From Leadbetterella sp. (GTDB lineage: Bacteria > Bacteroidota > Bacteroidia > Cytophagales > Spirosomataceae): DNA of 57,976 nt. Below, in pieces: positions 16,987 to 32,015 of the stretch (position 1 is the stretch's first letter; each line of letters starts with the position of its first letter). The stretch is taken from the NCBI GenBank assembly GCA_019638185.1, contig JAHBUH010000027.1:1-57976 (forward strand). Direction: 5' to 3'. The translations under genes and the position numbers were made by a program. The notes beneath the pieces are model-generated. The model made no database searches and was not told the DNA's origin. It worked only from the letters and a program-made list of their open reading frames with translations.

Positions 16987-19269
16987 TTAAAATTTAACAG
17001 TATAATTAATAAACGGTAAAACAGGAAACATGGAATATTGTTTGATCACCAGCGTGGGGTTCTGTCCCGTTTGTGGTTCACTTGTCTTTCTGAAATCCAG
17101 GTATAAAGGATTAGCGCGGTTGTAAACATTGTACAGTCCGAAGCTTAGTTTTGTTTCATACCTTTTCCAGAGTTTTCCGCTCCGGGTGACACCCAGATCC
17201 AGTTTGTGGAAATCCGGCATACGGCCGTTATTCCGTCCGTGGTAAATATATCTTGTATTACCGTTGTACTGAACCGCCCCTACCGGCAAAGTCACCGCAT
17301 GCCCTGTCTGGTAAATAAAGGTCCCGTTCAGGCTCCATTTCTTATTAAAGGTATAGGAGGCAGAGGCATTCAGGTTATGGAGGCGGTCGTATTTCATGGG
17401 GTACCACTGCCCGGCATTGATCTCCTCAAACTTCAGTTCACTCCTGGACAGGGTGTAGGAAACCCGGCCTCTTAGCTTCCCGGAATTTCGGGTGGCCATC
17501 ATTTCCAGTCCGGAGCTGCGTCCCCGCCCCCCGCTTTTTACGATATCCTCCCAGGAGTCGGCCAGCATCCCCGTGAAATTGGTGCCGTCCGGGTAGTCGA
17601 TCATATTCGTTATGTTTTTCCGGTAGTACTCCAACGACAGATCGATACCCGGCTTAACCAACTTACGCGACAGGCCCGCGGACCATTGCCGCGCTCTGGA
17701 CGGCGGTATACGTTCAGTGGCCGGCAGCCAGGCATCATAACCAAAACCATAGCCGTTATTGACCAGCAAATGCAGGTATTGATTCATGACGGTGGCACTA
17801 CCCGTTAATTTCCAATGGTCAGCAAATGACCAGGTGGCTGCCAGGCGGGGCTCCGGGTTACGAAAAGCCGCACCTCCCACGCTGTACTCCGTAAACCTTC
17901 CTCCCACATTCAGGCCCAGCCGTGAAGTCAGTTTTATATCTGTATCCAGGAATATGCTGGTTTGGGCCGCATTCAGGCGGGTCGGGTGGCCGGTAGTCAT
18001 CGGGGTATAATTACTGTTCATGCTGAAAGGAGAAAACCGGTGACGGGTATGATCTATGCCTATCCGCATTTCAAGCCACCGTACCGGGTAATAGTCCAGT
18101 TGTATTTTTCCGCCCACATCCGTGATCCGCGTATCGCTATAACGGTAAAAATCCTGTTCACCGTCTTTAGACCGGTTAGTAAACTGGCTGGTATAGTCCG
18201 AATAGATCAGGATGGCCCGCGAAAACAATTTGGGCGAGAGCATTTTACTGTAGCGGATGGTGCCCGTATTATTTCCCCAGTTATTACCTACCGCCGTAGA
18301 GACTTCCTTTTGATTGGTCTTACTCCATTCGTCATATTTAAACCGGTCAAAGCCGTTATAAAAACTCAGGTAGATGTGGTCGGTTTTGCTGATCTGGTAA
18401 TTTACCTTGGCGTTAAGATCATGGAATCTGTAGGTATAATCTTCACCAAAAGTATTGGCTCGTCTTTTAGGCGTTAATAAAGAACTTAAGCCCAGGGTAG
18501 ACACCCGGCCGGATACAATAAACGAAGCTTTATTCTTAACTATCGGCCCCTCCAGCGTCAGGCTTTGGTTCATCAGTCCTAATCCCAGTTCTCCCCCGAA
18601 CTCCCGGTTATTCCCTTCTTTCATGGTCAGGTCCATCACCGAAGAAAGCCGCCCACCGTAACGGGCCGGGAAAGCCCCCTTATACAAATCGGCACTTTTC
18701 AGGGAGGCCGGGTTAAATACCGAGAAAAAACCGCCCAGGTGCATGGCATTGTAGACAGGTACGTCATCCAGCAGGATCAGGTTCTGGTCCGGGGTGCCGC
18801 CTCTTACATATAACCCGGCGCTGCCTTCGTTACCAGTAGAAACCCCGGGTGTAAAGCTGAATGCTTTCAGCACATCGGCTTCGCCCAGTAGTACCGGCAT
18901 GTTCCGAATCTCGCTTATGGGCAAAGAAACCGGGTTACCGGGAAGTGTTTTGGGTGCCGTGATCACTACTTCCTCCAAAGCGGTGGCCCGCTTCAAGCGG
19001 ATGTCCATCGGCTCATTACCCGGCTGAATGTACTGCGGCTGATAGCCCACATAGCTGAACCGGATGGCCTGGGGCCGGGTGGCTAAAGTCAGGCTGAAAA
19101 AACCATACGTATTGGTGAAGGTACCGGCCCCCGACAGGCTGTCCCACACGCTAACACCGCCCAGCAGCTCCCCGCTCTCCAGGTCATAAACCCGGCCACT
19201 CACGGTAACCTGCTGCGCAGACACCTGAGCCGAACACCCTAAAAGAAGAATCCACAAAAATACTCTCAT
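16987..19269 (-). CDS. TonB-dependent receptor paired with a DUF4249 lipoprotein
   Basis: A 760-residue outer-membrane receptor. The signal peptide ends at VSAQ. The carboxypeptidase-regulatory-like domain (~20-100, VSGRVYDLESGELLGGVSV...) is followed by a plug domain (~105-225). The plug contains LGEADVLKAFSFTPGVS, GLYVRGGTPDQNLILLDDVPVYN and the RYGGRLSSVMDL box. The barrel then runs to LPFINYTVKF with a terminal Phe. The LDDVPVYNA and GGRLSSV wording is typical of the receptors that occur with DUF4249 lipoproteins. The gene starts at the base after the DUF4249 stop codon, so the two are translated together. The imported compound is unknown. Confidence 0.9.
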   Translation of the reverse strand: MRVFLWILLLGCSAQVSAQQVTVSGRVYDLESGELLGGVSVWDSLSGAGTFTNTYGFFSLTLATRPQAIRFSYVGYQPQYIQPGNEPMDIRLKRATALEEVVITAPKTLPGNPVSLPISEIRNMPVLLGEADVLKAFSFTPGVSTGNEGSAGLYVRGGTPDQNLILLDDVPVYNAMHLGGFFSVFNPASLKSADLYKGAFPARYGGRLSSVMDLTMKEGNNREFGGELGLGLMNQSLTLEGPIVKNKASFIVSGRVSTLGLSSLLTPKRRANTFGEDYTYRFHDLNAKVNYQISKTDHIYLSFYNGFDRFKYDEWSKTNQKEVSTAVGNNWGNNTGTIRYSKMLSPKLFSRAILIYSDYTSQFTNRSKDGEQDFYRYSDTRITDVGGKIQLDYYPVRWLEMRIGIDHTRHRFSPFSMNSNYTPMTTGHPTRLNAAQTSIFLDTDIKLTSRLGLNVGGRFTEYSVGGAAFRNPEPRLAATWSFADHWKLTGSATVMNQYLHLLVNNGYGFGYDAWLPATERIPPSRARQWSAGLSRKLVKPGIDLSLEYYRKNITNMIDYPDGTNFTGMLADSWEDIVKSGGRGRSSGLEMMATRNSGKLRGRVSYTLSRSELKFEEINAGQWYPMKYDRLHNLNASASYTFNKKWSLNGTFIYQTGHAVTLPVGAVQYNGNTRYIYHGRNNGRMPDFHKLDLGVTRSGKLWKRYETKLSFGLYNVYNRANPLYLDFRKTSEPQTGQNPTLVIKQYSMFPVLPFINYTVKF

Positions 19270-20202
19270 CTACATTATTGTGGTTAGAATGGCATTGTAG
19301 CCATAAATAATTCCATAGCCGTTTTTCACATTGGTATAAGCCTCCTGAGGTGGGAGCACCAGGTGGTCAAGTCCTTCCGGCTGTTTTTCTTCTATCTGGT
19401 TATACCGGAACCATTCTTTGGTGACGGCGGCCATCTGTAAAGTGAGCGTATGAGCCCTGATATATTCTCTGCCGAAACCGGGACGGGAATCAAGTTTTGA
19501 GCTGCTTACAAAAAAACCGAGCGGTGCATCTGCGGGAATGCATGCCCCATTCATCATAAACTGATAGGCAAACTCCCTGTCAAAGGATATTCCCGAAGTA
19601 TGACACTCCTCTTCATTGGCCACCAGATTAGTGGCAGCCGGGTACGAGTACGCCGACAGTGCATTATCACTAAAGGAAGCCCGGAAAGCAATAGTCAGGT
19701 ATGTATCCGGCAGGCGCTCATTGGCTTTAAAATAAAAGGCGATATAGTCCTGCGGGCCGCTACCTGAATTTCTCTCCGGATCCGCATCTCTTTTCCGGGT
19801 GTACCGGAACTCAGGAACAGACACCGGAACCGTCACTTCTTCCGACTCCGCCGTGGGGTAACCTTCGGCTTCCACGCGGACCGTGTAGGTTTGTCCGGCT
19901 TCTATGCTCCGGTCTGAGCCATAAAAACCGTCTTTACCGGTAGAGGCCAACTGAGTATAAAAATCTCCATTTTGAAACAGGGTAACCGTAGCCGTATTTA
20001 TGGTGGTCTCTTCCGGAAGAGGGCCCACAGCAGGAAAAGTCCGCATCACCTGTATACGTACAGGTTTTCCGGCTTCCAGCCTGCCCCATAGCACCAGTTT
20101 TTCTCCTTCGAAAACCAGGGGAATGACTACCTCACGCCCCCGGCAGGAGGTTAGCAAAAAAATAATAACACAGACCCAAACCGTCTTCTGAAAAAAATCC
20201 AT
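19270..20202 (-). CDS. DUF4249 lipoprotein, partner of the TonB receptor
   Basis: A 310-residue surface or periplasmic lipoprotein. The N-terminal hydrophobic run ends in LLTSC, giving lipid-modified Cys20. It is followed by the beta-rich DUF4249 fold: VVIPLVFEGEKLVLWGRLEAGKPVRIQV, then INTATVTLFQNGDFYTQL and GQTYTVRVEAEGYPTAESEEVTVP. The family is found next to TonB receptors in Bacteroidota and, by analogy with SusD, may hold ligand over the barrel; that role is inference. It is the first gene of its operon. Two dyads upstream (20259-20270 and 20295-20312) may be control sites. Confidence 0.85.
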   Translation of the reverse strand: MDFFQKTVWVCVIIFLLTSCRGREVVIPLVFEGEKLVLWGRLEAGKPVRIQVMRTFPAVGPLPEETTINTATVTLFQNGDFYTQLASTGKDGFYGSDRSIEAGQTYTVRVEAEGYPTAESEEVTVPVSVPEFRYTRKRDADPERNSGSGPQDYIAFYFKANERLPDTYLTIAFRASFSDNALSAYSYPAATNLVANEEECHTSGISFDREFAYQFMMNGACIPADAPLGFFVSSSKLDSRPGFGREYIRAHTLTLQMAAVTKEWFRYNQIEEKQPEGLDHLVLPPQEAYTNVKNGYGIIYGYNAILTTIM

Positions 20203-23608: not shown

Positions 23609-23623
23609 TGCAACATTGTTGCA
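23609..23623 (+). promoter_or_regulatory. 7-1-7 inverted repeat, candidate Fur-family (Zur-like) operator
   Basis: TGCAACA-T-TGTTGCA is a perfect 15-base inverted repeat of 7-1-7 geometry, the arrangement bound by Fur, Zur and PerR dimers. It overlaps the -33 element of the receptor promoter (23615-23618), so an occupied site would block RNA polymerase. Zur is the favoured candidate because of the His-rich products downstream; the identity of the regulator is inference. Confidence 0.6.
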
Positions 23624-23645
23624 GTTAATTTATTTCCTACTTTTG
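23615..23645 (+). promoter_or_regulatory. Predicted promoter of the TonB receptor / DUF4625 operon
   Basis: The -33 box ATTG (23615-23618), a spacer of 19 bases and a perfect -7 box TACTTTTG (23638-23645) fit the Bacteroidota consensus. Transcription should start about 23651-23655, which excludes the upstream in-frame start at 23616 for the receptor. Confidence 0.7.
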
Positions 23646-23678
23646 CAATGCTATTACCTGATTGCATACGATGAATTT

Positions 23679-26072
23679 GTGGGTTTGAAACATTTTTTCT
23701 GGATTATCGTACTATTTACTTTCTCCGCTGCTTCCGGGCAAACCTATTCGGTTAAGGGGAAGGTCATCCACTTCAAAAGCGGGGTGCAGCATGCCGTAGT
23801 AGTGCTGGATGACTCCCTGCACCGTACCACGGATAAGCAGGGGGATTTTATGTTCTCCGGCCTGCCCCGGGGCGCTCATAAGCTCCTGGTCACCCATACC
23901 CAGTATAAGCCGGTGCTGTTAAAAGTGGAGATCGGATCAGACACCACCCTGCCGGTCATTGATCTCCAGGAGAGCATCTATGAACTGAAAGAGCTGGTGG
24001 TTTCGGAAAACCGCCGCGAAAAAGCCCGGAAAGACAATGCCCTGAACCTGGAAGTGGTTAACGCTGATTTTATCCGTAAAAACCTCAGCGGCAGCCTCAT
24101 GCAAACCCTGGAAAAAATACCCGGAGTGAACGCCATGACCATCGGCTCAGGACAGTCCAAACCCCAGATCCGCGGGCTGGGCTTTAACCAGGTGGTAGTG
24201 GTAGACGGCGGCATCAAGCACGAGGGACAGCAGTGGGGGGCCGATCACGGCCTGGAGATCGACCAGTTTGCGGCCGGTTCATTGGAGATCCTGAAAGGCG
24301 CCGCCTCCTACCTCTACGGATCGGACGCCATCGGCGGGATCATCCGCGTAAACCCGCCCCTTCCGCCGGCCCTGCACAGCCTGAATGTAGCGCTGAACAG
24401 CTCATATATGAGTAACAGTCGTGCGGTGGGAAACTCCCTGAATTTTAGCGCACGCCAGCACTCGTGGTACGTGGACGCCCGCGCCACCGTGCGTGACTAC
24501 GGCGACTACCGCGTGCCCACCGAGCTCATCTACGTGTACGATTACGACGTGCACCTGCCGGGTGGCTATGTGCGTAACTCCGCCGGGCGCGAAAGAAATT
24601 TTCACCTGGCCCTGGGCCGGATCACTGAAAACTACCAGACACGGCTGTCGGTCAGCAATGTTTTCGCTAAAAGCGGTTTTTTCGCCAATGCCCACGGACT
24701 GGAGCCACGCCGGGTGAATACGGCCCTGCATGACGCCTCCCACCGTGATATCCAGCTGCCCCAACAGCAGGTGAACCACTTTAAAGTCATCAGCAATACC
24801 GTGCGTACCGCCGGTAAGCATGAGCTGAGCCTGGATGCCGCCTACCAGCAAAATCTGCGCAAGGAAATGAGCCCCTACGTGAGCCACGGATTCATGCCGC
24901 CGGTGTTCCCTGATCCTTTCCCCTATCCTTCCGAGCTGGAACGGCAGTACGATAAGCAGGTGGTTTCAGGCAGCCTGCGCGATAAGCTGAGCCTGAAAAA
25001 CCACCAGCTCACCCTCGGCGGGAATTACGAGTACCAGGAAAACGAGATCGGCGGCTGGGGCTTCCTGATCCCGGCTTTTACCCAGCACCAGGCGGGGCTG
25101 TTTGCCTATGATAAATGGGAAGTAAGTAATAAGACCATCATTCACGGGGCCCTGCGCTATGACGGGGGGCATATCCGGATCCGGGAATACACCGACTGGT
25201 TTCCTTCCGGCCAGGACGGTACTTCGGAATACCTCATCCGGGTGCAGGCCACTGACCGCTCTTTTCATAACCTGAACTGGTCTTTGGGAGCGAATTACGC
25301 CCTCGGTAAAACCCAACTTAAGCTTAACCTGGGCACCAGCTTCCGGATGCCGCTGGCCAAAGAACTGGCCGCTAACGGCGTAAACTACCATTACTTCCGG
25401 TATGAGCGGGGGAACAGCGGGCTATCGCCGGAGAAATCCTACCAGTTGGACCTGGGCGTTTTCCACAAAACGGAGAAGCTGGAACTGGAGTTTACCCCAT
25501 TTTATAATTATTTCCCCAATTACATCTACCTGAACCCCACCGCCGGGCGGGATTACCTGTACGGTGCCGGGAACCAGGTATTTGAATACCAGCAGAGCCG
25601 GGTGATGCGCTACGGCGCGGAGGCGCTGGTGCGCTACCATTTTACAAAGCGCTGGACGGCCCAGCTCTCCGGCGACTACCTGTATAACCGTCAGCTCTCC
25701 GGCAGCAAAACCGGGTTTAACCTCCCCTTTTCGCCGCCACCTTCCGCATCAGGCAGCATTTCCTGGCTCCCGGGAGCCCGGCACCCGAAGATATGGAAAG
25801 ACAGCCATATTTCGTTGGATATAAAGCATGCGTTAAAGCAGGACCGGATCGTGCCGCCGGAGCGGGTCACCCCGGCGTATACCGTGCTGGGCCTTTCGGC
25901 GGGTACGGAGCTTCAGGCAGGCCGTCAGAAATGGAGCCTGGACCTGCAGGTCAATAACCTGCTGAATACGCGCTATCTGAATCATACCAGTTTTTACCGG
26001 CTCATTGACCTGCCGGAAACCGGGAGAAACATTACCGTAAATTTAAGAATACCGCTCAGTTTTGCTATCTAG
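23679..26072 (+). CDS. TonB-dependent receptor, probable metal (zinc) uptake
   Basis: The open frame begins at 23616, but that lies inside the promoter. The likely start is GTG at 23679 (797 aa) or TTG at 23685, followed by a signal peptide ending SAASGQ. Domains in order are a carboxypeptidase-regulatory-like sandwich (~25-105), a plug with LEKIPGVNAM, KPQIRGLGFNQVVVVDGG and SYLYGSDAIGG, and a barrel ending RNITVNLRIPLSFAI. A loop in the plug reads IKHEGQQWGADHGLE. Histidines recur in barrel loops (NAHGLEPRR, ALHDASHRD, NHFKV). This resembles ZnuD-type zinc receptors. The three following genes on the same strand encode His-rich exported proteins, and a 7-1-7 operator overlaps the promoter. 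A zinc substrate is inference; TonB-dependent receptor identity is secure. Confidence 0.85.
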   Translation: MGLKHFFWIIVLFTFSAASGQTYSVKGKVIHFKSGVQHAVVVLDDSLHRTTDKQGDFMFSGLPRGAHKLLVTHTQYKPVLLKVEIGSDTTLPVIDLQESIYELKELVVSENRREKARKDNALNLEVVNADFIRKNLSGSLMQTLEKIPGVNAMTIGSGQSKPQIRGLGFNQVVVVDGGIKHEGQQWGADHGLEIDQFAAGSLEILKGAASYLYGSDAIGGIIRVNPPLPPALHSLNVALNSSYMSNSRAVGNSLNFSARQHSWYVDARATVRDYGDYRVPTELIYVYDYDVHLPGGYVRNSAGRERNFHLALGRITENYQTRLSVSNVFAKSGFFANAHGLEPRRVNTALHDASHRDIQLPQQQVNHFKVISNTVRTAGKHELSLDAAYQQNLRKEMSPYVSHGFMPPVFPDPFPYPSELERQYDKQVVSGSLRDKLSLKNHQLTLGGNYEYQENEIGGWGFLIPAFTQHQAGLFAYDKWEVSNKTIIHGALRYDGGHIRIREYTDWFPSGQDGTSEYLIRVQATDRSFHNLNWSLGANYALGKTQLKLNLGTSFRMPLAKELAANGVNYHYFRYERGNSGLSPEKSYQLDLGVFHKTEKLELEFTPFYNYFPNYIYLNPTAGRDYLYGAGNQVFEYQQSRVMRYGAEALVRYHFTKRWTAQLSGDYLYNRQLSGSKTGFNLPFSPPPSASGSISWLPGARHPKIWKDSHISLDIKHALKQDRIVPPERVTPAYTVLGLSAGTELQAGRQKWSLDLQVNNLLNTRYLNHTSFYRLIDLPETGRNITVNLRIPLSFAI

Positions 26073-26358
26073 GCTGACACACATATCGAAACTCCTGGCG
26101 CTGACCGCCGCGGCTCTGCTGATCGTGATATCGGTACACGGACTCTTTTTGCATCACGATTCCCATGCCAAGCCCGGTGACAGCCACCCCTGTACCTTAT
26201 GTGAGGCCGCTATATTTCAATATACCTTCCCGGAAATCCCGCGTTTTGTGGCAGAGCTTACGGCTCCCGTCATTTCCCACACCTACCGGGAACCCCGCAT
26301 TTTCGTCAAAACCGTTCATCGTTTAGGCCTGAGAGGCCCCCCGTCTGTCGGCGTCTGA
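26062..26358 (+). CDS. Small membrane-anchored His/Cys-rich protein
   Basis: A 98-residue protein starting at TTG inside the last codons of the receptor gene (11-base overlap), so it is translationally coupled. One hydrophobic segment (LLALTAAALLIVISVHGLFL) is followed at once by HHDSHAKPGDSHPCTLCEA. That cluster, four histidines with a CxxC pair, looks like a metal site on the outer face of the membrane. The rest shows no known domain. I do not recognise a family with confidence. By position it probably takes part in metal handling with the receptor. Confidence 0.65.
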   Translation: MLSRLTHISKLLALTAAALLIVISVHGLFLHHDSHAKPGDSHPCTLCEAAIFQYTFPEIPRFVAELTAPVISHTYREPRIFVKTVHRLGLRGPPSVGV

Positions 26359-26363
26359 TTTTA

Positions 26364-26380
26364 CCCGGGGACACCCCGGG
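26364..26380 (+). terminator. GC-rich hairpin between the receptor pair and the DUF4625 genes
   Basis: CCCGGGG-ACA-CCCCGGG is a perfect 7-base stem with a 3-base loop, 6 bases past the stop codon, followed by CTACCTATTTTTA. It could partly terminate or process the transcript, giving unequal amounts of receptor and lipoproteins. Confidence 0.45.
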
Positions 26381-26469
26381 CTACCTATTTTTAGGATTTA
26401 GTGCAGGTACCGGGGAGTTTTCTTTTCCGGAAACCCGCGCTGTCCGTGAATTATATATCTTTTTAAACG

Positions 26470-26922
26470 ATGAAAAAATACTTATTTCTTTGGGTGGTGC
26501 TCCTGTCGGGATGCAGCTCCAATGAGCCGGAAATTGACAAAACCTATCCTGAGATCAGTACTCAGGGGATGTTTCCGCAGCCCTGTGCGGTGCTGGAACG
26601 GGGTAAAACACATACGTTCACCGTCACGTTTTCCGATAACCGTGAGCTGGGATCGTTTAACTTCGATATCCATAATAATTTTAATCATCATAACCACAGC
26701 ACCTCGGAGGGGACATGCGCGGAAGACCCGGTGAAAGCCCCGGTAAACCCGTTCCTACTGATCAAATCCGGGGATATCCCGGCCGGTAATACGCAGTATA
26801 CCGCTAATGTGCCGGTGACCGTTCCGGCCGACGTAGACGAGGGGGATTACCATTTTGCGGTGGGCGTGACAGATAAGACCGGCTGGCAGACCATCAAAAC
26901 GATGAGTATAAAAATCAAATAA
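26470..26922 (+). CDS. DUF4625 lipoprotein, His-rich
   Basis: A 150-residue exported lipoprotein. The signal sequence ends in LLSGC (Cys15). The mature part is one immunoglobulin-like DUF4625 domain: ERGKTHTFTVTFSDNRELGSFNFDIHNNFNHHNHST, then DEGDYHFAVGVTDKTGWQT. The central loop holds five histidines within twelve residues and a nearby Cys (GTCAED) with a partner earlier (QPCAVL), which suggests metal binding. The family is restricted mainly to Bacteroidota and has no assigned function. It lies downstream of the TonB receptor and 12 bases before a second DUF4625 gene. It could present metal to the receptor, as SusD-type lipoproteins do for sugars; this is inference. Confidence 0.8.
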   Translation: MKKYLFLWVVLLSGCSSNEPEIDKTYPEISTQGMFPQPCAVLERGKTHTFTVTFSDNRELGSFNFDIHNNFNHHNHSTSEGTCAEDPVKAPVNPFLLIKSGDIPAGNTQYTANVPVTVPADVDEGDYHFAVGVTDKTGWQTIKTMSIKIK

Positions 26923-26934
26923 TTTTAAATCAAA

Positions 26935-27324
26935 ATGAAAAACATATTTTTAGTAGTATTTGCCCTGGTTCTTTTTATTTCATGCAAAGACAAGGATGTG
27001 ACCGCTCCGCCGGTGATCTCCGATGTGGAAGTAGGTACGGGAGAAACCAATAACGGAAAAGTGGTGCGCGGCACCGAGCTTCACGTGGAAGCGCAGATTC
27101 TGGCCGAAGGCACCATCAGTAAGGCCGAAGTGCATATCAGCGGTGCAGGATGGGTATACGAGATGGACTTCCCTAACCTGGCAGGTAAGAAAAACGGCGA
27201 GATCCATACGCACATTGACGTGCCCGCTACCGCAGCGGTGGGGCATTACCATGTGCATATTTCAGTGACCGACCAGAAGGGACAGACCACCGAAGAAGAA
27301 GCCGAACTGGATATTACCGCGTGA
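26935..27324 (+). CDS. Second DUF4625 lipoprotein, His-rich
   Basis: A 129-residue lipoprotein with the lipobox LFISC (Cys17). The single DUF4625-like domain runs from PPVISDVEVG through RGTELHVEAQILAEG and ends with GHYHVHISVTDQKGQTTEEEA. Histidines appear in EIHTHIDVP and GHYHVHIS on neighbouring strands, a different arrangement from its upstream paralogue. The two are diverged tandem copies rather than a recent duplication. It is the last gene of the unit, followed by a strong hairpin. Confidence 0.75.
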   Translation: MKNIFLVVFALVLFISCKDKDVTAPPVISDVEVGTGETNNGKVVRGTELHVEAQILAEGTISKAEVHISGAGWVYEMDFPNLAGKKNGEIHTHIDVPATAAVGHYHVHISVTDQKGQTTEEEAELDITA

Positions 27325-27364: not shown

Positions 27365-27389
27365 GAAGGTGCCTTTCCCAGGCACCTTC
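27365..27389 (+). terminator. Hairpin ending the receptor / DUF4625 operon
   Basis: GAAGGTGCC and GGCACCTTC form a perfect 9-base stem around TTTCCCA, 40 bases past the stop codon. It is followed by CACTTTAAAAA, so the T-run is poor, but no gene lies between and the next promoter follows. Confidence 0.6.
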
Positions 27390-27473: not shown

Positions 27474-28130
27474 ATGAAAAAGCTATTAGAATGTTGGTTT
27501 TGTATTTTACCCTTAATCCCCGCCACTGCTCAAAGTTCCAAAGAAAAAATCTATGACGGAAGGGAATATGTACTCAGCAGTGTTCGTATTTCCGGAACTT
27601 CCTTTTTCCGGGATGGCGAAAACCCGCAGAATAACACCCTCCTGTTTGACAAGGTACTCTACCGGGATGTGCGGCTGCTCTACGACATCCGCACGGACGA
27701 GCTCATCACCCAGCGGCCCGGAGTGGCCAAAGACATCATTGTGGTGAAGGAACTGGTAGATTTCTTTACGCTGGGTAGAGATACCCTGGTCCACCTGAAA
27801 GAAGCGGGCACGGGGCTACCCGACGGCTTTTACCTGCAGATTTTTAACTCGCCCGCCTATAAAAGCGTGGCGCGTTATAAAAAGGAGCTCAAAGAGCCCC
27901 GGGCGGTTAAAGAAAAAAGCTATTATTCAGAAACGGTGAAATACTTTATGAAGACCCCGGGTTCAGATCATTTTATACCGGTAAGAAATATACAGAACTT
28001 ACTTTCTATCGATAAACAGTACAAAAAGAAATTGAGACGTTTATTACGTACTGAGGGAGACAGCGATAACTTCCCGGCATCCATTGCCCTGGTTTTGGAC
28101 TATCTTAACAAAGCCTCCAGACATGAATAA
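27474..28130 (+). CDS. Secreted protein of unknown function preceding a TonB receptor
   Basis: A 218-residue protein starting at ATG 27474, with a signal peptide ending near PATAQ. The mature part is mixed alpha/beta, with KIYDGREYVLSSVRISGTSFF early and a lysine/arginine-rich helical C-terminus (KQYKKKLRRLLRTEGD). No domain is recognised. Its last 8 bases overlap the start of the STN-type receptor gene, so the two are co-translated. It probably works with that receptor in the envelope, for example as a periplasmic accessory factor. Confidence 0.65.
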   Translation: MKKLLECWFCILPLIPATAQSSKEKIYDGREYVLSSVRISGTSFFRDGENPQNNTLLFDKVLYRDVRLLYDIRTDELITQRPGVAKDIIVVKELVDFFTLGRDTLVHLKEAGTGLPDGFYLQIFNSPAYKSVARYKKELKEPRAVKEKSYYSETVKYFMKTPGSDHFIPVRNIQNLLSIDKQYKKKLRRLLRTEGDSDNFPASIALVLDYLNKASRHE

Positions 28131-30849
28131 AACCTGTTTTTTCTGGCTGATTATTTTTGTATCCCTCAAAGGAATGGCCCAAAATGACCGGGTAAGCCTG
28201 AACCTGGCTTCTGCCCGCTTCAGCGATATGGTCCGGAGCCTGGAAAGCCAGACGCCCTATAAATTCTATTACCTGCCTGCAGATACCGACAGCCTCCTGA
28301 TCAGCTATTCAGGTACCAATAAAGCCCTGTCTGAAGTACTATCCGAAATACTGCATCCCCTGAATTTCCGGTTTGCCACAGATCCCCGTAAAAAGATCTA
28401 TATCACCCGGGATGCATTTATTCTTACGGAATTCCGGGACATCCACGGTTCAAAACCCACCGCTATACCTGATGTAGTGATCCGCGACTTCCTGGAAGCT
28501 CAGCCCGAAGACATCTCCATTGAAAATAAGGTGTTTGAGATCGGGAATAAAGACCGGCCCGTGAAAGGGGAGAAGACGCTTTCCGGCTATATCCGGAGTA
28601 AAAATACAGGCGCCCCCGTAAGCTCCGCCACCGTAAGCCTGGTGGGCCGGTCTGCGGCCGTACAGACCGACCAGCACGGGTACTACAGCCTTATCGTTCC
28701 TGAAGAGCGCAGCGTTTTAGTGGTCAGCAGTGTAGGCCTGCGTGAAACCCGGCGGCAGCTGGTAATGTACGGAAGCGGCCGGCTGGATATTGAAATGACA
28801 GACCAGGTTTTCTCCCTGAACGAGGTAGTAGTGGCCGGCGAAAGGGGTAACCAGGTAAAGAGAATCCAGATGGGCCTGGAAAAACTAAATATCAAAACCA
28901 TCAAACAGACGCCCGCCGTTTTCGGAGAAGCCGATGTGATCAGTGTGATCCTGACGCTACCGGGCGTACAGACCGTGGGCGAAGCGGCTAACGGCTTTAA
29001 TGTACGGGGCGGTGCCACGGATCAGAACCTGGTCCTCTTTAATGACGCCACCATCTTTAACCCCTCGCATTTCTTCGGCCTGTTTTCTTCTTTTAACCCC
29101 GATGCCGTTAACCAGGTGGAGCTCTATAAAAGCAGTATCCCTGCCCGCTTCGGAGGGCGGCTGTCGTCCGTGCTGGACGTGGCCGGGAAAGAGGGGAACC
29201 GGAACAAACTCTCCGGGGCCGGTGGTATAGGCCTGCTCACCGGGAGGGTATCGCTGGATGGCCCCATCGGGAAAAAAACGCAGTTCCTGGCCGGCGCCCG
29301 GAGCACGTATTCCGACTGGCTGCTGAAAGTGATCCCGGATGATGCCTACCGTAACAGCAGCGCTTCTTTTTACGACATTAACGGGCAGATCAGCCATTAT
29401 CTGAACGAGAAAGACGCGTTTTACCTGACCGGATATGCCAGCCGCGACCGCTTCAGCTTTGAAAACGGCATCACCTACGGTTACCGGAACGCCAACGTAA
29501 ACGGCAAATGGAAGCGGATATTTAATGGCAATGTCCATAGTATTCTCACCCTGGGTCATGATGAATACGGCTTCAATGTAGCCGACCGGAATAACGCGGC
29601 CAATGCATTTGATATGCAGTATTTCATAGGCCAATCTTTCTTAAAGGCCGATGTTTACCACCAGCTCCACGAGCGGCATAAGCTGAACTACGGGCTGCAA
29701 ACCACGCTTTACGCCATTCAGCCGGGCAAAAGGCTTCCGGCAGGGGAAGAGTCAATCGTGACTCCCCAATCCCTCCAGAATGAACAGGCCCTGGAATCTG
29801 CGCTCTATGTTTCAGACACCTATACCCTGAGTGACCGGTTCAGTGTGGACGCCGGCATCCGGTATGTGATGTACCAATACCTGGGGCCCCGCAGTGTCAA
29901 CCGTTACAGCGACGGCCTGCCCAAAAGCCCGGAAACCCTGGAGGAAACCCTTCACTACGGATCCGGAAAAAACATCAAAACCTATACGGGTCCGGAATTC
30001 AGGCTCGGCCTCCGCTATGCGTTTTCGAACCAGAGTTCCGTAAAGCTGGGCTATAACTCCCTGCATCAATTCATTCATATGCTGTCCAATACCACGGCAG
30101 CCACGCCTACCGACTCCTGGAAGCTGAGTGACCCGCACATTAAACCGCAGTTCGGCGACCAGCTGAGCCTGGGCTATTACCGGAATATGGCCTCCTCCAA
30201 AGTGGAAACATCGGTGGAAGTTTACTATAAACGCATTCATCATTACCTGGACTACAAAAGTGGTGCGGTGCTGCTCATGAATGAAACCATAGAAACGGAT
30301 GTGCTGGGAACCGAAGCCCGCGCCTACGGGGTGGAACTGATGGCCAAAAAAACTACCGGTAAACTGAACGGGTGGATCAGCTATACCCTGTCTAAAGCAC
30401 AGCAAAGGACCACCGGGGCGGAAACCATTAATAACGGCCGTTATTATAACAGTAATTTCGACAAGCCGCATAACCTGACCATGGTAGGAAATTACCGGTT
30501 TTCGCATCGCTACAGTTTTTCCATGAATACCACCTACAGTACGGGAAGGCCCATCACCCTGCCCATCGCCAAATATGAATTTGCAGGATCGGAACGCGTA
30601 TTTTACTCGGAAAGGAATAAATACAGGGTGCCTGATTTTTTCAGGATGGACCTTTCCCTTAACATAGAAGGGAATCACAAGATCAAAAAACTGGCCCACA
30701 GTTCCTGGACCGTGGGGGTGTATAACGTGACCGGCAGAAAGAACCCGTTCTCCATCTACTACGTATCGGAAGCGGGTAAAATTAAAGGGTACAAGCTTTC
30801 TGTTTTCGGCCACCAGATTCCTTTCCTGACTTATAACTTCAGATTTTGA
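28123..30849 (+). CDS. TonB-dependent receptor with STN domain
   Basis: A 908-residue receptor; the start is ATG 28123, within the end of the preceding gene. The signal peptide ends at GMAQ. Residues ~20-95 form an STN (secretin/TonB short N-terminal) domain (VSLNLASARFSDMVRSLESQ...). Then come a linker, a carboxypeptidase-regulatory-like domain (~165-245), a plug (~250-370; FGEADVISVILTLPGVQT, FNVRGGATDQNLVLFNDATIFN, RFGGRLSSVLDV) and a barrel ending in IPFLTYNFRF. STN domains in FecA-type transducers contact anti-sigma factors, but no sigma/anti-sigma pair is encoded nearby; many Bacteroidota receptors carry STN without one. It is followed by a DUF4249 gene, as in the operon at 16.4-20.2 kb. 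Confidence 0.9.
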   Translation: MNKTCFFWLIIFVSLKGMAQNDRVSLNLASARFSDMVRSLESQTPYKFYYLPADTDSLLISYSGTNKALSEVLSEILHPLNFRFATDPRKKIYITRDAFILTEFRDIHGSKPTAIPDVVIRDFLEAQPEDISIENKVFEIGNKDRPVKGEKTLSGYIRSKNTGAPVSSATVSLVGRSAAVQTDQHGYYSLIVPEERSVLVVSSVGLRETRRQLVMYGSGRLDIEMTDQVFSLNEVVVAGERGNQVKRIQMGLEKLNIKTIKQTPAVFGEADVISVILTLPGVQTVGEAANGFNVRGGATDQNLVLFNDATIFNPSHFFGLFSSFNPDAVNQVELYKSSIPARFGGRLSSVLDVAGKEGNRNKLSGAGGIGLLTGRVSLDGPIGKKTQFLAGARSTYSDWLLKVIPDDAYRNSSASFYDINGQISHYLNEKDAFYLTGYASRDRFSFENGITYGYRNANVNGKWKRIFNGNVHSILTLGHDEYGFNVADRNNAANAFDMQYFIGQSFLKADVYHQLHERHKLNYGLQTTLYAIQPGKRLPAGEESIVTPQSLQNEQALESALYVSDTYTLSDRFSVDAGIRYVMYQYLGPRSVNRYSDGLPKSPETLEETLHYGSGKNIKTYTGPEFRLGLRYAFSNQSSVKLGYNSLHQFIHMLSNTTAATPTDSWKLSDPHIKPQFGDQLSLGYYRNMASSKVETSVEVYYKRIHHYLDYKSGAVLLMNETIETDVLGTEARAYGVELMAKKTTGKLNGWISYTLSKAQQRTTGAETINNGRYYNSNFDKPHNLTMVGNYRFSHRYSFSMNTTYSTGRPITLPIAKYEFAGSERVFYSERNKYRVPDFFRMDLSLNIEGNHKIKKLAHSSWTVGVYNVTGRKNPFSIYYVSEAGKIKGYKLSVFGHQIPFLTYNFRF

Positions 30850-30854
30850 CGAGC

Positions 30855-32015
30855 ATGAAAGCGGTTACTAAAATATTTCAGCTGATCATGGGGGCTATGC
30901 TTCTTTTTTCCTGTGAAGAACTTTATACCCCCGTTTACGAGCAGGAAGATGCCAGCCCTATCCTGATCATTGAGGGTTATATCGATATGAGCGGTAACTC
31001 CCGCTTCAAACTCAGCCAGACGGTGCCGCTGAACGCCGAAGAGAGTAGGGTGCCCGTGGCAAACGCCACTTTAGCGGTGGAATCAGAAACAGGCCAGGCT
31101 TATGCTTCTTTCACTTCCACGGCGGGAGGGCAATACACCCTCTCCCACCCGGCACTGCCTATGACCACCCGCTACCGCGTGCGCATTAAAACACGGGGAA
31201 ATGAATACCTTTCCGATTGGGTCACGCCCTACGCCACTTCTGAAATATCCGGGATAGATCACCAGAGAACCGATACCGGGGTAGATATCCTGGTAAGTAC
31301 CGTGAACCGTAACGATAACTCCCGGTATTACCGCTGGGAATTTGAGGAAACCTGGAAATTCTCCGCCCGCTTTTTTAGCGCGATGGTTTTTGAAAGGGGT
31401 GAGGTCAGGTTCCGGAAGCAACCCGAAGAGAACATTTCCGTATGTTTCCGGCAGGAAAAATCTTCAGACATCGTCATCGGCACTACGGATAATCTCTCAG
31501 ACAATACCATCTCCAGGCAAAAGATACAGTTTATTCCCAATTTATCCGACAAACTGATGAACCGCTACTCTATCCTGGTAAAGCAGTTCAGCATCAGTAA
31601 GGAGGCCTGGCTTTTCTGGAGTATCCTGAAAAAAAATTCAGAGTCGGTAGGCGATATTTTCGGCTCCATGCCCTCTGAGCTAAAAGGAAACGTACACAAT
31701 ACCACCAACCCCCGGGAGCCGGTAATTGCCATGATAGAAGCCTCATGGCCGGCTCAGAAAAGAGTTTATATCAGTAATAATGACATGGGGTCCTGGGCCG
31801 TTTCCATCCCCTTTTACAGCGGCTGTGAATATATGGAAGTACCTGTGGGAGAAGCCGCATCCCTCTTTAGTAACCCGGCTGTTATCCCACTCAGTGACAT
31901 TTACAAGGTGCCGGACGCACCGCCCACTCATTATTCCTATACCACCAGCAGATGTACCGACTGTACACTGAGAGGCGGCTATCTGAATGTACCTGATTTC
32001 TGGACAGATTTATAA
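30855..32015 (+). CDS. DUF4249 lipoprotein (second copy)
   Basis: A 386-residue lipoprotein starting at ATG 30855, 5 bases after the receptor stop codon. The signal ends in LLFSC. The DUF4249 fold starts at SPILIIEGYIDMSGNSRFKLSQT and continues with VANATLAVESETGQAY and TRYRVRIKTRGNEYLSDW. It is about 75 residues longer than the copy at 19.3-20.2 kb, chiefly in the C-terminal half, which ends in a Cys pair (SRCTDCTLRGGYLNVPDFW) that is typical of the family. It is the receptor's partner by position; the ligand is unknown. Confidence 0.85.
   Translation: MKAVTKIFQLIMGAMLLFSCEELYTPVYEQEDASPILIIEGYIDMSGNSRFKLSQTVPLNAEESRVPVANATLAVESETGQAYASFTSTAGGQYTLSHPALPMTTRYRVRIKTRGNEYLSDWVTPYATSEISGIDHQRTDTGVDILVSTVNRNDNSRYYRWEFEETWKFSARFFSAMVFERGEVRFRKQPEENISVCFRQEKSSDIVIGTTDNLSDNTISRQKIQFIPNLSDKLMNRYSILVKQFSISKEAWLFWSILKKNSESVGDIFGSMPSELKGNVHNTTNPREPVIAMIEASWPAQKRVYISNNDMGSWAVSIPFYSGCEYMEVPVGEAASLFSNPAVIPLSDIYKVPDAPPTHYSYTTSRCTDCTLRGGYLNVPDFWTDL

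What the first reader, a model, noticed from the sequence alone, without database searches (positions are those of the whole stretch)
23609..27324. Candidate metal-scavenging locus: TonB receptor, His/Cys small protein and two DUF4625 lipoproteins behind a Fur-type operator
Seen: a perfect 7-1-7 inverted repeat (TGCAACA-T-TGTTGCA) overlaps the -33 box of a good promoter. Downstream, on one strand, lie a TonB receptor with His-bearing loops, a 98-residue membrane protein with HHDSH...H and CTLC, and two diverged DUF4625 lipoproteins rich in histidines (HNNFNHHNHST; EIHTHID and GHYHVHIS). Known: 7-1-7 repeats are the operator form of Fur-family repressors, and DUF4625 has no assigned function. 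Inference: this is a Zur-controlled zinc capture system in which the DUF4625 lipoproteins hand metal to the receptor, as SusD does for glycans. That role for DUF4625 would be new.
Basis: partly seen in the sequence, partly recalled or inferred. Interest (0 to 1): 0.75.

Follow-up and report, generated by a model that had tools for sequence, protein, structure and literature searches.

The report
Zinc-uptake operon with DUF4625 lipoproteins
A bacterium of the Bacteroidota carries an operon, behind what looks like a zinc-sensor DNA switch, that pairs a ZnuD-like receptor with histidine-bearing lipoproteins of a family without an assigned role (DUF4625), which makes that family testable as zinc catchers.

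Summary
TGCAACATTGTTGCA (23609-23623) is perfect and overlaps a Bacteroidota-type promoter. Its only other exact copy in the genome precedes a ZigA-type zinc-chaperone GTPase. The exact pattern is in 98 of 150 family genomes, the reversed one in none. Genes beside it include ZigA, AztD-like and MerC-like genes, His-rich lipoproteins and some Fur-family genes. The receptor's best solved match is the zinc receptor ZnuD, whose ligands Asp99-His100 are kept. Of 80 DUF4625 loci, 79 have the receptor and 59 a site with at most 2 mismatches upstream, against 11 of 826 background windows. AztD-like genes lie in 47 of 88 loci. Both DUF4625 clades carry near-invariant histidines; the 98-residue protein has relatives in 61 other loci.

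So this is most likely a Zur-repressed zinc acquisition operon. Hand-over of zinc from DUF4625 to the receptor is inference, with XusB/XusA as precedent. Against: no ZnuA gene here, no site at the own Fur-family genes, no metal data. A new variant of a known kind.

The parts
23609..23623 (.). Operator: perfect 7-1-7 inverted repeat TGCAACA-T-TGTTGCA (proposed Zur box)
23615..23645 (+). Promoter of the Bacteroidota type: ATTG (23615-23618), 19 bases, TACTTTTG (23638-23645); the first box lies inside the operator
   Evidence: sequence; TAnnTTTG spacing; the promoter consensus is recalled
23679..26072 (+). ZnuD-like TonB-dependent receptor (start GTG 23679 or TTG 23685) with CarboxypepD-like, plug and barrel domains
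26062..26358 (+). 98-residue small membrane-type protein with HHDSH, CTLC and C-terminal LRGPP; member of a small family of these operons
26470..26922 (+). DUF4625 lipoprotein, clade A (HNNFNHHNHST; conserved H68, H73, H74, H76, H128)
26935..27324 (+). DUF4625 lipoprotein, clade B (EIHTHID; conserved H50, H91, H93)
27365..27389 (.). Stem-loop after the last gene, a possible operon end
   Evidence: reported as terminator-like on the minus strand; 3 such sites in the stretch against 1.5 by chance, so weak

Best explanation
This is a zinc-limitation operon repressed by a Fur-family zinc sensor (Zur). When zinc is plentiful the zinc-loaded repressor sits on TGCAACA-N-TGTTGCA over the promoter. When zinc is scarce it lets go, and the operon makes a ZnuD-like TonB-dependent receptor, a small HxH/CxxC membrane-type protein and two lipoproteins of the DUF4625 family with an Ig-like fold. 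The lipoproteins, probably on the cell surface, bind zinc through conserved histidines (clade A: H68, H74, H76, H128; clade B: H50, H91, H93) and pass it to the receptor, which moves it into the periplasm using TonB. Shown here by comparison: operator, its regulon, gene association, ligand conservation. Inferred: repression by zinc-Zur, zinc as the cargo, surface position, metal binding, hand-over. The confidence given is for a Zur-type zinc-limitation uptake operon; the hand-over step alone I put at about 0.45.
For: Operator: the exact word also stands upstream of a ZigA-type GTPase (544 bits, cut-off 600). One-mismatch sites stand before a MerC-like gene with a His-rich lipoprotein, and before a small transporter followed by a heavy-metal ATPase with a His-rich N-terminus (names partly by eye). 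98 of 150 family genomes hold the exact pattern; the reversed control is 0 in every row. 64 of 74 site groups adjoin a recurrent gene class, and 33 of 74 adjoin ZigA, AztD-like, MerC-like or His-lipoprotein genes. At DUF4625 loci 41, 59 and 73 of 80 have a site with at most 1, 2 and 3 mismatches upstream, against 5, 11 and 47 of 826 background windows. The receptor is in 79 of 80 loci and in 12 of 16 places of a second draw. AztD-like genes are in 47 of 88 loci. A divergent Fur-family gene with motif copies (1-3 mismatches) between it and the operon is present in 6 of 7 loci examined. The receptor's best solved relative is ZnuD, with D187-H188 on its ligands Asp99-His100. Histidines: clade A H68, H74, H76, H128 in 55 of 55; clade B H50, H91, H93 in 51 of 52.
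Against: No expression or binding data. The own genome lacks ZnuA, so the inner-membrane step is unknown, and no site with 3 mismatches or fewer was found around its four Fur-family genes. One site-linked gene matches exporter-type zinc/cadmium ATPases, odd for a zinc-starvation regulon. The receptor scores far below the curated ZnuD cut-off (135 against 950 bits); the ZnuD ligand His499 has a candidate counterpart, H569, two residues off its column, and Glu340 was not aligned. No site of 2 mismatches or fewer at 21 of 80 loci, 15 of them Pedobacter and close relatives, nor at 2 of the 12 receptor loci of the second draw (L235, L237). Across the phylum the exact word is in only 9 of 198 genomes, the reversed one in 1. 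No metal-binding transport protein stands out among fold matches of the lipoproteins. Acidic residues after the lipid cysteine are frequent but not universal (31 of 55, 43 of 51).
Confidence: 0.82

Rival explanations
1. Same zinc-limitation operon, but the DUF4625 lipoproteins do not feed the receptor: they store or buffer zinc at the outer membrane, load periplasmic carriers (as AztD is thought to do, recalled), or strip zinc from proteins outside, while the receptor takes up zinc or a zinc chelate alone. This shares the operon-level reading with the best explanation and differs in the hand-over step only.
For: AztD-like chaperone genes lie in 47 of 88 loci, so one operon may hold several zinc binders with different places. 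At three DUF4625-B places no receptor was found (L047; L236 and L239). In L048 the receptor stands with a different His-rich lipoprotein as well as a DUF4625-like one.
Against: Clade A and the receptor go together in 79 of 80 loci, closer than expected for a general buffer. XusB/XusA shows the hand-over arrangement in the same phylum (abstract of PMC13142918).
Confidence: 0.4
2. The cargo is another metal or a metal complex (copper, nickel, cobalt, heme or a metallophore) and the regulator another member of the Fur family.
For: Heme, copper and B12 receptor models also match the receptor at lower scores, and the copper receptor OprC is among weaker solved matches. MerC-like proteins are known from mercury systems (recalled).
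Against: ZigA and AztD models carry zinc functions and are the best or only family for the neighbours tested, though both below their curated cut-offs. ZnuD is the best match of the receptor in both NCBIfam and PDB. The operator word differs from the usual iron Fur box (recalled).
Confidence: 0.1
3. The palindrome is a chance match next to an ordinary TonB locus.
For: 7-1-7 palindromes as a class are near chance level in the window (5 against 3.5).
Against: Word-specific recurrence and conservation at orthologous loci, and promoter spacing: TAnnTTTG starts 29-34 bases from the site start 76 times among 384 site occurrences, against once in a control stretch (each site counted on both strands and some loci overlap, so counts are not independent).
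Confidence: 0.01

Closest known systems
ZnuD (TdfJ), zinc receptor of Neisseria (PDB 4rdr)
   Same: TonB-dependent zinc receptor; best solved match of this receptor; zinc ligands Asp99-His100 conserved as D187-H188
   Different: Only distant similarity (135 bits against a cut-off of 950). TdfJ is described as lacking a lipoprotein partner like TbpB (passage of PMC6965322), while this one stands with two DUF4625 lipoproteins and a small CxxC protein, and has a CarboxypepD-like N-terminal domain
XusB/XusA of Bacteroides thetaiotaomicron
   Same: Lipoprotein that recognises a metal complex and passes it to its TonB-dependent transporter, in the same phylum (abstract of PMC13142918)
   Different: Iron-siderophore cargo; whether the lipoproteins are related was not compared
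Zur regulons of other phyla
   Same: COG0523 GTPases, TonB receptors, aztABC and Zur autoregulation recur; 7-1-7 boxes are one described form (passages of PMC6103462)
   Different: Operator word TGCAACA-N-TGTTGCA, different members (DUF4625, MerC-like, small CxxC/GPP protein), no ZnuA in this genome
SusD/SusC
   Same: Proposed division of labour: lipoprotein catches, TonB receptor imports
   Different: DUF4625 is a short Ig-like domain in the models, not SusD; the receptor does not reach the SusC signature cut-off (14 against 46 bits)
AztD zinc metallochaperone
   Same: Related genes sit beside many DUF4625 operons (79-105 bits to the AztD model in six tested)
   Different: Below the model's cut-off of 400; another family from DUF4625, and none is in the operon of this window

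Membership tests
DUF4625 (PF15418) | Profile score over the curated cut-off of 27 bits | tested here: met
   126.2 and 75.6 bits
ZnuD-type zinc receptor | TonB plug and barrel | tested here: met
   PF07715 56.8 bits, PF00593 112.1 bits
ZnuD-type zinc receptor | Curated NCBIfam ZnuD cut-off (950 bits) | tested here: not met
   135.2 bits, though the best of the families listed. Hence called ZnuD-like, not ZnuD
ZnuD-type zinc receptor | Zinc ligands Asp99-His100 | tested here: met
   D187 and H188 invariant in 34 aligned receptors, aligned to the Asp-His pair of 4rdr; ligand list from a passage of PMC6288298; the numbering offset of 14 is my deduction
ZnuD-type zinc receptor | Zinc ligands His499 and Glu340 | tested here: inconclusive
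   H569 (77 of 78) lies two residues from the column of His499; Glu340 falls in an unaligned stretch
ZnuD-type zinc receptor | Zinc transport and zinc-repressed expression | not testable with these tools
   needs experiment
Zur regulon | Palindromic operator shared with other zinc-homeostasis genes of the genome | tested here: met
   ZigA-type GTPase (exact site); MerC-like plus His-rich lipoprotein genes and a small transporter plus His-rich ATPase (one mismatch)
Zur regulon | Operator linked to the Fur-family gene itself | tested here: inconclusive
   Met in relatives: L075, 6 of 7 loci with a Fur-family gene examined, L246. Not met in the own genome: no site with 3 mismatches or fewer in the stretches around its four Fur-family genes (L053-L055)
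Zur regulon | Site at znuABC | tested here: not met
   no PF01297 gene in this genome (11 of 14 control genomes have one)
Zur regulon | Site at zinc-free ribosomal-protein paralogues | not tested
   none seen by eye among the neighbours of 74 site groups, but no targeted search was made
Zur regulon | Zinc-dependent repression | not testable with these tools
   needs experiment
SusC/SusD pair | SusC signature in the receptor | tested here: not met
   TIGR04057 14.4 bits against 46.2
Surface-exposed lipoprotein | Lipid-anchor cysteine followed by an acidic surface-export signal | tested here: inconclusive
   Cys15 in 55 of 55, Cys17 in 51 of 52; two or more acidic residues in the next five in 31 of 55 and 43 of 51; the signal rule is recalled
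DUF2946 (small protein) | Profile match | tested here: not met
   window member no match; 1 of 22 members at E 0.0012

The most novel reading that the evidence does not exclude
DUF4625 lipoproteins are a dedicated outer-surface zinc capture device: two Ig-like domains with different histidine sites act in relay on a ZnuD-like receptor, the first lipoprotein-assisted TonB zinc importer, controlled by an undescribed Zur box (TGCAACA-N-TGTTGCA) in Cytophagales, Sphingobacteriales and Flavobacterium, with a small CxxC/GPP membrane protein and often an AztD-like chaperone completing the path.
Probability: 0.45. Interest if true: 0.75.

Novelty: new variant of a known kind. Interest (0 to 1): 0.62.

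Why it matters
How zinc crosses the outer membrane of Bacteroidota seems little described, and this genome has no ZnuA-type gene at all. The evidence gives DUF4625 (no hit in the 5.39 million papers searched) a first testable role. It also names a candidate Zur operator that marks a regulon of several unstudied families, and it predicts a lipoprotein-assisted zinc receptor, parallel to the iron-stealing XusB/XusA. Relatives of the operon occur in Flavobacterium, Pedobacter, Dyadobacter, Chitinophaga and Algoriphagus.

Tried and rejected
The first receptor comparison against the 80 loci used a query in the wrong frame and is discarded; one search replaces it. A first attempt to define operon starts automatically (14, 25 and 38 of 78 loci with a site of at most 1, 2 and 3 mismatches) missed small upstream genes, so it undercounts; it was replaced by a fixed 1.1-kb window with background. 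Both are told because the second gives higher counts. Clade B was first counted by tblastn hits (75 of 80, my count); a recount of separate ORFs of 100 residues or more gives 70 of 80, so that number is used.

Rejected: a chance palindrome. Rejected as a label: SusC/SusD, DUF2946, ZnuD proper. Sequence searches of DUF4625 against PDB gave nothing useful; fold search gave generic Ig-like matches, for clade B mainly NPC2 at the top.

Literature: no paper with DUF4625. No Zur regulon of Bacteroidota was recognised in the listings (25 of 26 listed; 20 of 527 listed; none found; 12 of 30 listed), judged by titles and abstract starts except for the papers opened. Seen: passages of PMC11960050, PMC12574912, PMC6965322, PMC6288298, PMC9976891, PMC6103462; abstract, start of the introduction and outline of PMC13142918; the rest as search listings only.
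Full report
Check of the observation. The repeat TGCAACA-T-TGTTGCA stands at 23609-23623 and is perfect. Palindromes of that shape are not rare: five in the window against a mean of 3.5 in Markov controls. The word itself is what matters. It occurs exactly twice in the 4.2-Mb genome, and nine times with up to two mismatches against two for the reversed pattern. The promoter lies over it: ATTG at 23615-23618, 19 bases, TACTTTTG at 23638-23645. Over the held loci, TAnnTTTG begins 29-34 bases from the site start 76 times in 384 site occurrences, against once in a control stretch (each site counted on both strands, some loci overlap). Many relatives have two sites, mostly 38-40 bases apart (85 of 115 neighbouring pairs within 120 bases, my addition; overlapping loci again), and in some places (L044, L047, the ZigA gene) a TAnnTTTG overlaps the start of a site. 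That is the geometry of a repressor.

The genes. Receptor, small protein and two DUF4625 lipoproteins are confirmed. The receptor's usable start is GTG 23679 or TTG 23685, because TTG 23616 lies in the operator. The 98-residue ORF overlaps the receptor's end. A stem-loop at 27365-27389 may close the operon; the scan reads it on the minus strand. The order peptidase, TrhA-like, argB-like, site, receptor, small gene, A, B is kept in one same-genus genome, G073 (L041). DUF4625 was found in 2 of the 10 same-genus genomes and in 11 of 150 family genomes, 8 of them over the cut-off.

What the site controls elsewhere. The second exact site in this genome is directly upstream of a CobW/COG0523 GTPase that scores 544 bits to the zinc chaperone ZigA (cut-off 600). 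The one-mismatch sites are (i) between a MerC-like gene followed by a His-rich lipoprotein and a divergent secreted protein, and (ii) before a small transporter followed by a heavy-metal ATPase with a His-rich N-terminus. MerC-like is named by eye, as Pfam gave no such family. The ATPase, cut by the contig end, matches zinc/cadmium exporter models best, which is odd for a starvation regulon. In 150 family genomes the exact pattern occurs in 98; by my own addition of the printed column that is about 200 sites, and the reversed control is 0 in every row. The listing of places was capped. I read the neighbours of 74 site groups: four own loci plus the 68 other loci covering the places listed, one listed place (L047) being read apart. 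64 adjoin a recurrent class, and 33 adjoin ZigA, AztD-like, MerC-like or His-lipoprotein genes; the recurrent classes include the receptor class that holds this window itself. The ten groups without a recurrent class are L051, L075, L079, L080, L081, L083, L084, one of L180, L184 and L198. In L075 the exact site overlaps the start of a Fur-family ORF. Outside the family the exact word is rarer: 9 of 198 genomes of the phylum draw, the reversed pattern in 1.

Conservation at orthologous loci. A scan of genome contigs found 318 relatives of DUF4625 clade A; the best 80 loci were kept. The receptor (46-54% identity in the best segment) is in 79 of 80; a separate clade-B ORF of 100 residues or more was found in 70 of 80. 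Within 1.1 kb upstream of the first of these genes a site with at most 1, 2 or 3 mismatches is present in 41, 59 and 73 of 80 loci; background windows of the same length give 5, 11 and 47 of 826. Of the 21 loci without a site of 2 mismatches or fewer, 15 are Pedobacter and close relatives. A second draw of 296 phylum genomes had DUF4625 over the cut-off in 14. I read 16 places from 13 of them, the own genome left out; three further genomes below the cut-off were not read. The receptor is in 12 of 16. Ten of those 12 have a site with 2 mismatches or fewer in the stretch; L235 and L237 have none. Two places are lone clade-B genes, one (L239) with a one-mismatch site just upstream. Two weak members (43 and 28 bits) have neither receptor nor such a site.

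Zinc partners. AztD-like genes lie in 47 of 88 DUF4625 loci. Six tested proteins match only the AztD model, at 79-105 bits, below its cut-off of 400. The 88 loci include at least four genomes seen twice (family and named copies). ZigA relatives lie in 7 (one of them, L044, a distant COG0523 member) and a relative of the own C39 Fur-family protein in 11 of 88. Seven loci with such a gene were examined; in six (L091, L092, L098, L110, L129, L162) it is divergent from the operon with motif copies of 1-3 mismatches between, in L044 it is not adjacent. In L246 a Fur-family gene, a MerC-like gene, DUF4625 A and B, receptor and small gene lie within 13 kb with four sites of at most one mismatch, one of them just upstream of the Fur-family gene. 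The Fur proteins of these loci and two of the four own-genome paralogues (C39:104450 and C1:310179) mostly share a recognition-helix pattern [DS]R[VI][TS]xYR (L246 has NKTTIYR), unlike the other two own paralogues. So the own-genome Zur is probably one of those two, undecided; neither has a site in the stretch read around it.

The receptor. ZnuD is its best family in NCBIfam (135 bits, cut-off 950) and its best solved match. ZnuD binds zinc with Asp99, His100, Glu340 and His499 (passage of PMC6288298). D187-H188 align to Asp99-His100 and are invariant in 34 aligned receptors. H569 lies two residues from the His499 column. Glu340 is not covered. Further histidines H179, H365, H401, H440 and H767 are in 78 of 78 receptors aligned.

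The lipoproteins. The alignments used 55 clade-A sequences (three from the window and family loci, 52 of the 80 loci) and 52 clade-B sequences (three plus 49 of the 80 stretches printed). Clade A: Cys15, Cys39, Cys83, H68, H74, H76 and H128 in 55 of 55, H73 in 51 of 55. Clade B: H50, H91 and H93 in 51 of 52. Models are good (mean pLDDT 87.6 and 90.5) and Ig-like, but the stretch of clade A that holds its His-rich loop (residues 71-80) has a mean of only 67. In clade A, H68 ends one strand, H74 and H76 lie in the loop after it, and H128 stands in a later strand that neighbours it in Ig folds. In clade B, H50 and H91/H93 lie on strands that neighbour each other in such folds. A metal site is therefore plausible in both, but coordinates were not at hand and this is inference. 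No metal-transport protein stands out in the fold searches.

The small protein. Relatives with an N-terminal hydrophobic stretch, H or HxH, CxxC and a C-terminal [KR][GA]PP were found by pattern in 62 of 89 loci, the window included. Both cysteines and PP are invariant in the 22 aligned. Pfam has no family for it (DUF2946 matches 1 of 22 weakly).

Mechanism. Best reading: zinc-Zur covers the promoter; zinc shortage frees it; receptor, lipoproteins and small protein are made together; lipoproteins bind zinc, probably outside, and pass it to the receptor; TonB drives it in. Steps shown by comparison are the operator, the regulon, the gene partnership and ligand conservation. The sensing, cargo, location, binding and hand-over are inferred. 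XusB passes iron-siderophores to XusA in Bacteroides (abstract of PMC13142918), so a lipoprotein hand-over has a precedent in this phylum. The Neisseria zinc receptor is described as lacking such a partner (PMC6965322 passage).

Novelty. No paper in the library holds the term DUF4625. The 2018 review of Zur regulons has no word beginning with 'bacteroid' in its main text. The listings showed no described Zur regulon in Bacteroidota, as far as titles and abstract starts tell; subscription papers and regulon databases were not seen, so the operator may be known there. I rate it a new variant of a known kind.

Noticed in passing
G000:C12 (L049 6003-6953) and class CL1: A FAD/NAD(P)-dependent, thioredoxin-reductase-like gene (named by eye) is among the site-adjacent genes 14 times and stands directly after ZigA in this genome; its role in zinc shortage is unexplained.
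   Followed up: no
L056-L065, L069, L070, L166, L186, L197 and others, class CL0: A family of about 183-residue lipoproteins (DDNELITTVEL...) is the commonest neighbour of the exact operator (22 genes); the one member tested has no Pfam or NCBIfam family, and MerC-like or ZigA genes are next to it in several loci.
   Followed up: partly
Classes CL2 and CL5 (for example L068, L166, L192; L050, L074, L085): Small MerC-like membrane proteins (named by eye) recur behind the operator, 10 and 7 genes; in a genome without ZnuA they are candidates for the inner-membrane zinc step.
   Followed up: no
window genome G000: No ZnuA-type gene (PF01297) is found although 11 of 14 control genomes have one.
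   Followed up: partly
window 16987-20202 (-) and 28084-32015 (+): Two further TonB receptor plus lipoprotein pairs flank the zinc operon; the lipoproteins look like the DUF4249 type (recalled, not tested).
   Followed up: no
L246 5661-6320: A GTP cyclohydrolase I-like gene (named by eye) follows a MerC-like gene behind a site shared with a divergent Fur-family gene; the Zur review lists folE2 in several Zur regulons.
   Followed up: no
L194 and L196: On the other side of the exact site stands a Fur-family gene of the ordinary type (46-49% to own C38 and C39:110245), not of the type proposed as Zur.
   Followed up: no
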